This document shows positions 1,254 to 5,655 of a stretch of 8,515 nucleotides of DNA, one piece after another. The position numbers and the translations under genes were made by a program. The notes beneath the pieces are model-generated. The model ran no database searches and was not told the origin of the DNA. It was given only the letters and a program-made list of their open reading frames with translations. The first letter of the stretch is position 1, and every line of letters begins with the position of its first letter. Location: the NCBI GenBank assembly GCA_030040815.1, contig JASHSZ010000580.1, positions 1 through 8,515 on the forward strand, read 5' to 3'. Source of the stretch: Streptosporangiaceae bacterium (GTDB taxonomy: Bacteria; Actinomycetota; Actinomycetes; Streptosporangiales; Streptosporangiaceae).

Positions 1254-3086
1254 CTAGCCTGCCAAGCCGACGCTGAAGGCGGTCGGGCCCAGGCCAAACG
1301 GGGCCGCCGCCATGACCCCCACCCCGCCCGGCAGCGCGGGCAGCAGGGTCTGGGTGGCGCCGGTCGCGGGATCGAGCCAGAGCAGCGCCGAGGAGCCAGG
1401 GCAGCTCGTCTCGGCGAGCAGCAGGAGCCGGCCGTCCAGCGCCGAGACCACGGCGGTGTGGTTGTTGGTGGTGCCGCTCACGCTGATCGGCTGCAGCGAA
1501 CCGCCGCTGACCGTGGATACTGTCTCCCCGCCCGGCCCGGATGCGGCGCTCGGGCACTGGGTGAAGGCGGTCGTGTTGGCGTACACGGCACCGGCCGCCT
1601 GCCACGCTCCGACGAAGATGCCCATGCCCGACGGCGAGCCCGATGCACTGGTCACCGGTGTCGGAGTGCTCCCGTCCGCCGGCACCAGCCACAGTCGGCT
1701 TACGCTCGGCGGCTGGCCGGTGACCTCGCAGTCCGCAAGGACCGTGTCGGTGCTCCACCAGGTCACCGGGATACACGACGGCGGCGAGCCGCTGTCGGGC
1801 ACGGCGAGCCTGCGGATCACGGACCCGCCGGCATTGCTCAGGAGCTGCATCTCGTCGCCCGCCACGCCCCAGACGGCGAAGAGCCCGGTCGGGGAGCTCA
1901 GCGCCCCGCATTCCGTACCGCAATCCGGCCAGTTGGGGGTGACGCCTGGCTTGACCGGCAGCGACCCGATCGTTGCCTGGTAGGTCCCAGCCAGATTGAA
2001 GCGCTCCAGCTGGAACGCGGTCGAGGTCTGGTTCACCGCCAGGATGTTGAGACCCATCGGCCGGGTAAAGCCGACGGCGGTGACGCCCGCCGGCAATGGC
2101 AGCGCCGACATGCTGCCGGTTGTCAGGGACAGCAGCTCGTAGCCCGCTCCGCTACCCGACGAGCCAGGCGGCACCTCAAAAAGCGCGTTCTGGGCATTAC
2201 CCGACCACGCGAGCAGGACCGGCGCGGGGCCGGCCGACGTCTGAATCTGGTACTTGCCCCCCTCCGGATCCACCAGGTAGGTGGTCACCGTGCCACCCCC
2301 GGTCGCGGTTCCGTTGGGTCCCGGTGCGGCGGTAGAGACCTCCGCCACCGTCCAGCCAGCCACGACCAGGGACCACGGGATCGCGCCGATGGTGCCTGTC
2401 CGGCCCGCTGCGAGCATCTGCACCGTCGGCTTGTGGTGCGCTGCGGCCGCGCCTGTGCCATGGCTGGCGGGTCGCGCGCCGGGATTGCGCCCGGCGACCA
2501 GGTAGCCAATCCCGCCCGCCGCGCCGAGGGCGACGACGACAGTCAGCACGACGAGGGTGACCGGGAGTCGGCGACGTCTCGGGGAGAACCCGCCGGGCGG
2601 CCCTGGCGGCCACGGCCCGCCGGGCTGGACGGGCTGCCCGCTGAGTGCCGCCTGGTCGCCAGCCAGCCGAGCGGTCGCCGTGGCGCTGCCCGGCCTGGAG
2701 GCGGGGGTGAACCAGCTGCCTGCCTGCTCCTCGGCGCGGTTCGGGGGCGGGGTCACGGTCTTGTCGCCGGCGCCGGCCGACTCGTTGCGGACCGGGCGGA
2801 ACATCCCCGGCATGCTCAGCGGGTCGTGACCGGGCCGGGTCGGGTCGGGGGCCGGGGCGGGGGCCATGGGTCGCCTGCGCTGGTAGGCCTCCCTGGCGAC
2901 GGCCAGCACCCAGCCCTCGGTGTCCGGGTAGCCGGATATCTCATACCACTGCTGGTAGGCACGGGCGTACGCCTCGCGAATCGCGTGATCAGCAGCGCTG
3001 TCATCGCCCGCCAGAGCGTGCATCTGGCTGGTGACGTTGCCCACCGTCCGGGCGTAGAAGGCCTCAAAGGACTCCGAGTCGGGCAT
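1254..3086 (-). CDS. Membrane protein with sigma-70 region-2-like N-terminus and extracytoplasmic propeller-like domain
   Basis: 610 residues. Residues 6-72 (SFEAFYARTVGNVTSQMHAL..., then HAIREAYARAYQQW and GWVLAVAREAYQRRR) resemble region 2 of SigE-type ECF sigma factors. No region 4 follows. Instead there is a Pro/Gly-rich linker (about 73-170), the basic stop RRRR (170-173), one transmembrane helix (about 174-197) and a ~410-residue part with repeated beta-strand/GG/W patterns suggesting a propeller. Positive-inside logic puts the sigma-like part in the cytoplasm. All six cysteines (389, 393, 438, 453, 511, 562) are in the outer part, consistent with disulfides. ATG 3086 is preceded by an excellent Shine-Dalgarno sequence. 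The region-2 and topology readings are by eye; function is unknown. It may be a membrane-tethered regulator, or a degenerate sigma factor now acting as a sensor or anchor. It shares the strand of dapC, 124 nt downstream of it. Confidence 0.82.
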   Translation of the reverse strand: MPDSESFEAFYARTVGNVTSQMHALAGDDSAADHAIREAYARAYQQWYEISGYPDTEGWVLAVAREAYQRRRPMAPAPAPDPTRPGHDPLSMPGMFRPVRNESAGAGDKTVTPPPNRAEEQAGSWFTPASRPGSATATARLAGDQAALSGQPVQPGGPWPPGPPGGFSPRRRRLPVTLVVLTVVVALGAAGGIGYLVAGRNPGARPASHGTGAAAAHHKPTVQMLAAGRTGTIGAIPWSLVVAGWTVAEVSTAAPGPNGTATGGGTVTTYLVDPEGGKYQIQTSAGPAPVLLAWSGNAQNALFEVPPGSSGSGAGYELLSLTTGSMSALPLPAGVTAVGFTRPMGLNILAVNQTSTAFQLERFNLAGTYQATIGSLPVKPGVTPNWPDCGTECGALSSPTGLFAVWGVAGDEMQLLSNAGGSVIRRLAVPDSGSPPSCIPVTWWSTDTVLADCEVTGQPPSVSRLWLVPADGSTPTPVTSASGSPSGMGIFVGAWQAAGAVYANTTAFTQCPSAASGPGGETVSTVSGGSLQPISVSGTTNNHTAVVSALDGRLLLLAETSCPGSSALLWLDPATGATQTLLPALPGGVGVMAAAPFGLGPTAFSVGLAG

Positions 3087-3095
3087 GCGCTGCTA

Positions 3096-3102
3096 CACCT
3101 CC
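3096..3102 (-). promoter_or_regulatory. Strong ribosome binding site for the sigma-like membrane protein
   Basis: On the minus strand GGAGGTG lies 9 nt before ATG 3086, a full match to the 16S rRNA 3' tail. It fixes the start codon. It also shows that this message has a real leader, unlike the leaderless genes elsewhere in the window. Confidence 0.75.
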
Positions 3103-4806: not shown

Positions 4807-5655
4807 TCAGCCGAACTCGACGCTGGCCGTGCCGCCTAGCCCCGGCGGCGTGCCACGCTGGGCCCGCCATCGGCTGGGTCCGCTGAAGCCCAGCCACCGG
4901 TAGCCCCCGTACCGGACGCTGTCAATGCCGTACTCGGCGCCGTGGCTCACGAGCCAGGCTGTTACGGCCCAGCCCTGTGCGACCGCTCCGACGCTGACGA
5001 TCATGGTCCGACTACGGCCCGCCGGGCGGGCGGTCAGGCCGAACGCAGCCGTCATGGCCCGGCCGGCCGCAGCAAGGCTGGCCGCGCCCGGCGGATCGGC
5101 GTAGCTGCACCAGACAGAGTGCGGGTCGGCTCCGGTGAACGCGGCGGCGAGCGCGGTCCCCAGGTCGGCCCACTGCGCGTAAGCGGACCCGTCTGCGCTG
5201 TGCTGCACATCCTGCGCCGCGACGTCAATGGGCAGGTTCAGGTACTGCGGCACCGCCACCAGGGCGTCGAAGAACCGCTCGGTGGCGTAAACGGGATCCT
5301 CGATCTGCCGCGCGCTACCCCAGCCCTGCGACGGGCGTTGCTGGAACACGCCGACCGAGTCGAGGTCGCCGTAGTGCAGGTTCTGCAGCTTCGATTCCTG
5401 CAGCGCAGTCGCGTACGCGATTGCCACGGCCCGCTCCGGCAGCGCTCGCCGGGTCGCGACCCCGGCGATGATGGCCGCGATGCCCGCCTGACCGGGCGTC
5501 AGCTCTAGCTCCTGGCCGCCGACGCTGGCCGCGCACGCGGTAAACCGGGGTGGGGGCGCGGGGGACGGCCGGAGCACGAGATAGATCGCGCCGCAGAACA
5601 GAATCACGACGAGCGCCGCCGCCAGCCGTGATCCACGCTGTCTGGATAGCGGCAC
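4807..5655 (-). CDS. Membrane-anchored lysozyme/transglycosylase-like protein
   Basis: 282 residues. A short basic N-terminus is followed by a hydrophobic segment (about 11-28), a signal anchor or uncleaved signal, then a proline spacer (30-36) and an extracytoplasmic part. Residues about 53-185 resemble a lysozyme-like fold of a widespread actinobacterial family. The markers are AYATALQESKLQNL with the likely catalytic E87, GDLDSVGVFQQRPSQGWG (96-113), QIEDPVYATERFFDAL, and C41/C183, which may pair. The C-terminal ~80 residues (VSVGAVAQGWAVTAWLVSHG, then YGIDSVRYGGYRW) form a second small domain typical of the family and of unknown role. Homologues are often labelled hypothetical or, doubtfully, heavy metal transporter; I see no metal-transport features. 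Peptidoglycan cleavage is inferred, not shown. The start is GTG 5655, with a -10 box 6 nt upstream suggesting leaderless translation. It is divergent from dapD and 149 nt upstream of fdxA on the same strand. Confidence 0.85.
   Translation of the reverse strand: MPLSRQRGSRLAAALVVILFCGAIYLVLRPSPAPPPRFTACAASVGGQELELTPGQAGIAAIIAGVATRRALPERAVAIAYATALQESKLQNLHYGDLDSVGVFQQRPSQGWGSARQIEDPVYATERFFDALVAVPQYLNLPIDVAAQDVQHSADGSAYAQWADLGTALAAAFTGADPHSVWCSYADPPGAASLAAAGRAMTAAFGLTARPAGRSRTMIVSVGAVAQGWAVTAWLVSHGAEYGIDSVRYGGYRWLGFSGPSRWRAQRGTPPGLGGTASVEFG

What the first reader, a model, noticed from the sequence alone, without database searches (positions are those of the whole stretch)
1254..3086. One-protein sigma region 2, membrane helix and extracytoplasmic sensor fusion without region 4
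The first ~70 residues look like region 2 of a SigE-type ECF sigma factor, the part that binds core RNA polymerase and melts the -10. The -35-binding region 4 is replaced by a proline-rich linker, a transmembrane helix and a ~410-residue disulfide-capable, propeller-like outer domain. Normally sigma and membrane sensor are separate proteins (ECF plus anti-sigma). Possible roles are a tethered sigma freed by proteolysis, a decoy that titrates an anti-sigma factor, or a degenerate sigma domain reused as a cytoplasmic adaptor. No separate anti-sigma or ECF gene lies next to it in this window.
Basis: partly seen in the sequence, partly recalled or inferred. Interest (0 to 1): 0.72.

Follow-up and report, generated by a model that had tools for sequence, protein, structure and literature searches.

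The report
Membrane sensor with disarmed sigma domain
This soil actinobacterial gene joins half of a transcription-starting sigma factor, apparently disarmed, to a membrane anchor and an outside propeller-shaped domain, a combination that may let the cell surface act on sigma regulation without a working sigma factor.

Summary
The minus-strand gene 1254-3086 (610 aa) encodes a SigE-type ECF sigma region 2 (residues 4-72), a Pro-rich linker, one membrane helix (about 178-198, N-in) and an outer beta propeller (about 224-605), without region 4. It is not an artefact: 261 homologues at E<=1e-3; of 150 larger ones examined 148 have the sigma part and none a region 4. The sigma part is the best-conserved part (78% mean pairwise identity against 57% for the propeller; pN/pS 0.26 against 0.60), so it is probably used. 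But residues typical of a working region 2 are replaced in a fixed way: region 2.2 Asp by His (179 of 182 rows) and Gln by Arg (182 of 182), where 44 and 40 of 49 canonical relatives keep Asp and Gln. I read it as a disarmed sigma-2 mimic on a membrane sensor, most likely a decoy for a sigma-binding partner (PhyR-like logic), not a sigma factor awaiting release. No partner is shown; a plain adaptor remains possible. Membrane-fused ECFs (ECF52/53), ECFs with WD40 extensions (ECF57) and sigma mimics (PhyR) are known; this combination looks like a new variant.

The parts
1254..3086 (-). whole gene, 610 aa: sigma-2-like domain, linker, TM helix, beta propeller
3096..3102 (-). likely ribosome-binding site GGAGGTG before the ATG at 3086
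   Evidence: read directly
2871..3077 (-). SigE-type sigma region 2 (residues 4-72), helical
2946..2993 (-). region 2.2 helix, residues 32-47 (ADHAIREAYARAYQQW), near-invariant except residue 42; canonical Asp is His at 34, canonical Gln is Arg at 37
2574..2858 (-). Pro-rich, poorly conserved, disordered cytoplasmic linker (residues 77-171)
   Evidence: (pLDDT under 50 at 77-180)
2793..2831 (-). conserved short motif in the linker (residues 86-98; pattern D/E, up to 4 residues, [WML]-P-G-x-[FYW]-R found in 106 of 112)
2493..2555 (-). membrane helix (residues 178-198), Arg-rich on the N side
1272..2417 (-). extracytoplasmic beta propeller (residues 224-605), TolB/S9-peptidase-like, with four invariant Cys

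Best explanation
A single-pass membrane sensor whose cytoplasmic head is a sigma region 2 that no longer works as a sigma factor but still serves as a binding module. Shown: the anatomy, its conservation across the family, the fixed replacement of the region 2.2 Asp and Gln, the absence of region 4. Inferred: that it cannot join core RNA polymerase; that the outer propeller (ligand, cell wall, or redox state through its Cys) changes exposure of the head; that the head binds a protein that normally grips SigE-type sigma factors, most simply the short cytoplasmic segment of one of the TM proteins encoded beside SigE genes in these genomes, and so frees or holds the true sigma factor (a membrane-bound counterpart of PhyR).
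For: Fold kept. The domain is the best-conserved part: mean pairwise identity 77.8% against 57.4% propeller and 31.3% linker (1500 sampled pairs of the 120 listed homologues); pN/pS 0.26, 0.60, 0.89 (21 pairs of 7 genes). Position 34 is Asp in 44 and Glu in 5 of 49 canonical SigE, His in 179 of 182 fusion rows; position 37 is Gln in 40 of 49 (never Arg), Arg in 182 of 182; position 61 Arg in 36 of 49, Leu in 178 of 182; position 66 Asn in 38 of 49, Glu or Asp in 164 of 182. The seven genomes with the fusion hold 30 to 105 matches each to the SigE model at E<=0.001. Of 31 canonical SigE frames with a following frame, 19 are followed by one with a hydrophobic stretch behind a short head, judged by eye; likewise 5 of 9 loci of close canonical relatives. 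Precedents: PhyR's sigma-like domain has degenerate core and promoter contacts and titrates NepR (PMC8103513, passages); ECF43 sigma factors that lack the acidic DAED motif of region 2.2 are inactive until phosphorylated (PMC8999054, passages).
Against: No sigma-binding gene was found conserved beside it; its usual neighbours are fdxA-dapC and a convergent DUF2087 gene. The acidic patch of region 2.2 is reduced, not gone: position 33 is Asp and 38 Glu in 182 of 182 rows (canonical 33 is Glu in 40 and Gln in 8, 38 is Glu in 17 of 49). Class I anti-sigma factors are held to bind two faces of an ECF (title of PMC7406223 in the listing; details recalled), and a region-2-only mimic offers one. That the TM neighbours of SigE genes are anti-sigma proteins is inference. 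Conservation does not separate decoy from adaptor. Many rows were found by searches that use words of this same domain, so real variation is probably underestimated; the 118 rows alone give His-Arg in 117 and Glu-Arg in 1.
Confidence: 0.45

Rival explanations
1. Cytoplasmic adaptor: the sigma-2 fold was reused to bind a protein unrelated to sigma regulation (for instance an envelope or metabolic enzyme), and the propeller controls that.
For: A residue set of its own is fixed on the former core-binding helix; a conserved linker motif in 106 of 112 suggests a further docking site; directly after dapC in 4 of 7 fusion loci and in the window.
Against: No such use of a sigma-2 fold appeared in the listings (titles and abstract starts only); genomes rich in SigE-type genes make a sigma-linked partner the simpler guess.
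Confidence: 0.3
2. Tethered sigma factor: regulated proteolysis frees the head, which joins core polymerase and melts a -10 element without region 4.
For: IutY is shown, and ECF48/52/53 are expected, to be membrane-fused sigma factors freed by proteolysis (PMC8999054, passages; PMC5826349, passages). An acidic residue at 33 and Glu38 are present in 182 of 182.
Against: Those are, as I understand them (not tested here), complete sigma factors with region 4; here 0 of 148 have one. Region 2.2 Asp and Gln are replaced, and so are Arg61 and Asn66. I recall, from no call, that Gln to Arg at the matching place of sigma 32 (Q80R) lowers core affinity; none of the 8 papers listed of 75 holds that term.
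Confidence: 0.12
3. Split sigma factor as in SigO-RsoA: the head supplies region 2 and a separate protein supplies region 4.
For: RsoA is a natural region-2-only protein that works with SigO (PMC8103513, passages).
Against: The canonical SigE profile finds no region-4-only frame in the seven fusion loci, apart from the second half of the broken sigma gene in L002, nor do in ten window ORFs; core-contact residues are replaced.
Confidence: 0.08
4. Decaying relic or assembly chimera.
For: Some copies are broken (P0155 loses the propeller frame), and a sigma-2/propeller frame in L039 sits near a contig end.
Against: 261 homologues from several sources; intact frames in 6 of 6 full-length locus copies, with purifying selection strongest on the sigma part.
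Confidence: 0.02

Closest known systems
SigE-type ECF sigma factors of actinobacteria (NCBIfam TIGR02983)
   Same: Region 2 sequence and fold; nearest relatives that keep the Gln, L093 and L094, are 47% identical over 64 residues
   Different: No region 4; region 2.2 Asp and Gln replaced; fused to linker, TM helix and propeller
ECF48/ECF52/ECF53 membrane-fused sigma factors (e.g. SCO4117)
   Same: Sigma part, Pro-rich stretch, TM helix and outer domain in one actinobacterial protein (passages)
   Different: Those carry a zinc finger anti-sigma domain and, in SCO4117, a carbohydrate-binding outer domain; neither was found here, and region 4 is missing here
ECF57 sigma factors with WD40-like C-terminal extensions
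   Same: ECF sigma part followed by propeller-type repeats (passage)
   Different: The passage describes two Cys linking sigma 2 and sigma 4, so region 4 is present; it mentions no membrane helix
PhyR (alphaproteobacterial sigma-factor mimic)
   Same: Sigma-like domain with degenerate core and promoter contacts in a signalling protein (passages)
   Different: PhyR is a response regulator; here a TM helix and propeller. One of 15 members gives a weak PhyR_sigma2 hit (0.0056), about as weak as Sigma70_r2
ECF43 sigma factors such as EcfP
   Same: Acidic motif of region 2.2 lost across the group (passages)
   Different: Soluble sigma factor switched on by Thr phosphorylation; here His and Arg stand in the motif
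RsoA of the SigO-RsoA split sigma factor
   Same: Region 2 without region 4 (passage)
   Different: Works with a separate region-4 protein, SigO; none found here
Outer-domain relatives in Mycobacterium/Mycolicibacterium (31 loci) and Acidimicrobiaceae (4 loci)
   Same: Propeller domain, 28-36% identical
   Different: Many begin with a signal-peptide- or lipobox-like stretch, judged by eye, instead of sigma head and linker

Membership tests
SigE-type ECF sigma factor | sigma region 2 sequence and fold | tested here: met
SigE-type ECF sigma factor | sigma region 4 (-35 binding) | tested here: not met
   profile match past position 100 in 0 of 148 homologues
SigE-type ECF sigma factor | region 2.2 Asp and Gln | tested here: not met
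   His 179/182, Arg 182/182 against Asp 44/49 and Gln 40/49 in canonical relatives
SigE-type ECF sigma factor | binds core polymerase and starts transcription | not testable with these tools
   needs bench work
Membrane-fused ECF (ECF48/52/53) | complete sigma factor with zinc-finger anti-sigma domain and TM helix | tested here: not met
   TM helix present, but no region 4 and no zinc-finger family at E<=1
ECF57 | complete sigma factor with WD40-like extension | tested here: not met
   propeller present, region 4 absent; no ECF57 profile was at hand
PhyR-type sigma mimic | sigma-like domain with degenerate core and DNA contacts | tested here: met
   residues; fold; that the contacts are lost in fact is inferred
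PhyR-type sigma mimic | receiver domain | tested here: not met
   no response-regulator match; propeller instead
PhyR-type sigma mimic | binds and titrates an anti-sigma protein | not testable with these tools
   partner unknown
RsoA/SigO split sigma | region-4 partner encoded alongside | tested here: not met
   ten window ORFs; seven fusion loci
ECF43 (EcfP) | Thr in place of the acidic motif, kinase gene nearby | tested here: not met
   stretch reads A-D-H-A-I-R-E; no kinase family in ten window ORFs

The most novel reading that the evidence does not exclude
A transmembrane sigma-factor decoy: an outer propeller presents or withdraws a disarmed sigma region 2 on the inner face of the membrane, so that an extracytoplasmic signal frees a true SigE-type sigma factor by competing for its membrane-bound partner, without kinase, phosphorylation or proteolysis.
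Probability: 0.3. Interest if true: 0.82.

Novelty: new variant of a known kind. Interest (0 to 1): 0.62.

Why it matters
The seven genomes in which I found the fusion carry 30 to 105 SigE-model matches each at E<=0.001 (not all over the curated cut-off). A fixed, strongly selected sigma-2 mimic on a membrane sensor would be a new wiring for sigma control and, because the changed residues are few and named, it makes the question whether region 2 alone can serve as a mimic directly testable.

Tried and rejected
Rejected: operon with dapC as the key to function, since in L002, L006 and L007 (3 of 7 fusion loci) the fusion lies over 3 kb from dapC. In ten relatives chosen for lack of a strong fusion hit, the dapC regions (L129-L138) show no propeller match and one SigE-profile match (L132); I read the genes only of L138, where unrelated genes follow dapC. 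Rejected: relation of the fusion propeller to the outer parts of SigE neighbour proteins; its profile finds none in L055-L084 and L093-L114 at E<=10. Considered: the ECF gene about 9 kb away in L001, L004 and L034; it keeps D-A-E-D and Q, and by recall looks like the classical actinobacterial sigE at an old syntenic site, so nearness need not mean a link; not tested further.

Led nowhere: promoter and terminator scan (none found, 0.1 and 0.3 expected); PDB sequence searches (none; 4 weak matches, best SigR at E 0.076); PF26549, precomputed for some homologues but not reported by the held Pfam copy, so its meaning is unknown; Gln-to-Arg literature; papers on SigE in Streptosporangiaceae.

Limits and dropped rows: one search used 115 of 120 homologues (those passing an N-terminal pattern); one search used no such pattern, gave 182 rows from 184 proteins and agrees. 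One search's motif and TM counts use 112 of 120. One search examined 150 of 177 retrieved proteins; the 27 short ones were left out. Its exceptions are P0030 and P0119 (no sigma part; P0030 is named partial) and P0155 (no propeller). The 49 canonical sequences come from loci ranked best by two searches, not a random sample. The locus scan used two peptide patterns, one inside the sigma head, so divergent heads can be missed. In one search, 8 of 250 genomes have a match under 1e-30, seven of them known beforehand, so this is no frequency; only 22 candidates per genome were scored. In one search, 8 of 14 control genomes also ring below the cut-off, so the match counts include other ECF types, and for three genomes not all candidates were scored. 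The hydrophobicity maxima overlap (1.81-2.54 for the 19, 1.05-1.98 for the 12), so that split rests on reading the sequences. No tree was built.

Full report

Not an artefact. The protein search gives 261 homologues at E<=1e-3 among 7995 scored candidates, 120 listed. Of 150 proteins examined (27 short ones left out), 148 have the sigma-2 part and 149 the propeller; none of the 148 has a region 4 match. A genome scan found 54 loci. Seven carry the sigma head (L001-L004, L006, L007, L034), L005 is cut off at its start, and 46 match only from residue 100 or later: 31 are Mycobacterium or Mycolicibacterium, 4 Acidimicrobiaceae, 11 others. The gene order seen in the window recurs: dapC is followed directly by the fusion in L001, L003, L004 and L034, and DUF2087 faces it; in L002, L006 and L007 DUF2087 follows dapC and the fusion lies over 3 kb further on. 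In L006 a SigE gene and TM partner lie in that gap, in L002 the sigma is split over two frames, and L007 has other genes there. In L001, L004 and L034 a complete ECF gene of another type, which keeps D-A-E-D and Q, lies about 9 kb from the fusion.

The sigma part is kept but changed. It is the best-conserved part: mean pairwise identity 77.8% against 57.4% (propeller) and 31.3% (linker); pN/pS 0.26, 0.60 and 0.89 over 21 pairs. It differs from 49 canonical SigE sequences at fixed places, counted on 182 rows: position 34 His 179 (canonical Asp 44, Glu 5 of 49), position 37 Arg 182 (Gln 40, none Arg), position 61 Leu 178 (Arg 36), position 66 Glu or Asp 164 (Asn 38). The three rows without His at 34 are L003 (Gln), P0097 (Glu) and P0147 (Asp); the 118 rows that come alone give 117 His-Arg and 1 Glu-Arg. 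Canonical positions 31-34 read D-A-E-D in the commonest letters (17, 48, 40 and 44 of 49). I take this to be the DAED motif whose absence leaves ECF43 sigma factors inactive until phosphorylated (PMC8999054, passages only). Position 33 stays acidic (Asp in 182 of 182) and 38 is Glu in 182 of 182, so the acidic patch is reduced, not gone. Two relatives at 47% identity (L093, L094) keep the Gln and the Arg, which suggests that the change came with the fusion family.

Setting. The seven genomes with the fusion hold 30 to 105 matches each to the SigE model at E<=0.001; with five more genomes the range is 27 to 117 (other ECF types are counted in, since 8 of 14 control genomes also ring below the cut-off). 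Of 31 canonical SigE frames with a following frame, 19 precede one with a hydrophobic stretch behind a short head and 12 precede another, soluble-looking conserved gene, judged by eye. Among nine loci of close canonical relatives five show such a TM neighbour. That these neighbours are anti-sigma proteins is inference.

Reading. I take the protein as a membrane sensor with a disarmed sigma-2 head. A decoy for a sigma-binding partner is the simplest use, by analogy with PhyR (PMC8103513, passages only); an adaptor is next. A releasable sigma factor, as proposed for ECF52 (PMC8999054 and PMC5826349, passages only), is less likely for want of region 4 and of the usual core contacts. As to print: in the listings no title or abstract start points to a region-2-only, membrane-bound sigma-like protein with a propeller. 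The library holds open-licence papers only, and beyond listings I saw passages of three papers. Nearest in those passages are ECF52/53 fusions and ECF57 with WD40-like extensions.

Noticed in passing
L006:7170-8917, L002:7111-8869: A SigE-family ECF gene with a TM partner lies between DUF2087 and the fusion in these relatives; one frame in L006, split over two frames in L002.
   Followed up: partly
L001:691-1347 (-), L004:45-878 (-), L034:131-979 (-): A complete ECF gene of another type about 9 kb from the fusion in three relatives; by recall like the classical actinobacterial sigE. Its regulator might be a candidate partner.
   Followed up: partly
L102:1099-2382: One open frame (428 aa) holds a diverged sigma-2-like stretch without the Gln (VRQAMTKAFDDW, then WVL as in the fusion) ahead of a complete ECF-like sequence; two genes in frame or a double sigma protein.
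   Followed up: no
L039:17641-18588: A frame near a contig end joins an ECF region 2 to the last part of a related propeller; an independent fusion, a deletion or an assembly product.
   Followed up: partly
L054:9782-11218: Relative with Pro-rich start, TM helix and propeller but no sigma domain; none of the other window genes was found beside it.
   Followed up: partly
loci L055-L066: In 12 of 12 genomes the best SigE match sits directly before the same soluble-looking gene; a conserved pair worth naming.
   Followed up: no
window 4807-5655 (-): 282 aa protein with no Pfam or NCBIfam match at E<=1, found between fdxA and dapD in 6 of 7 fusion loci.
   Followed up: no
window 2793-2831 (-): Conserved linker motif (106 of 112), and in 43 of 112 homologues a D-x-x-T-like motif further on; possible docking or phosphorylation sites.
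   Followed up: no
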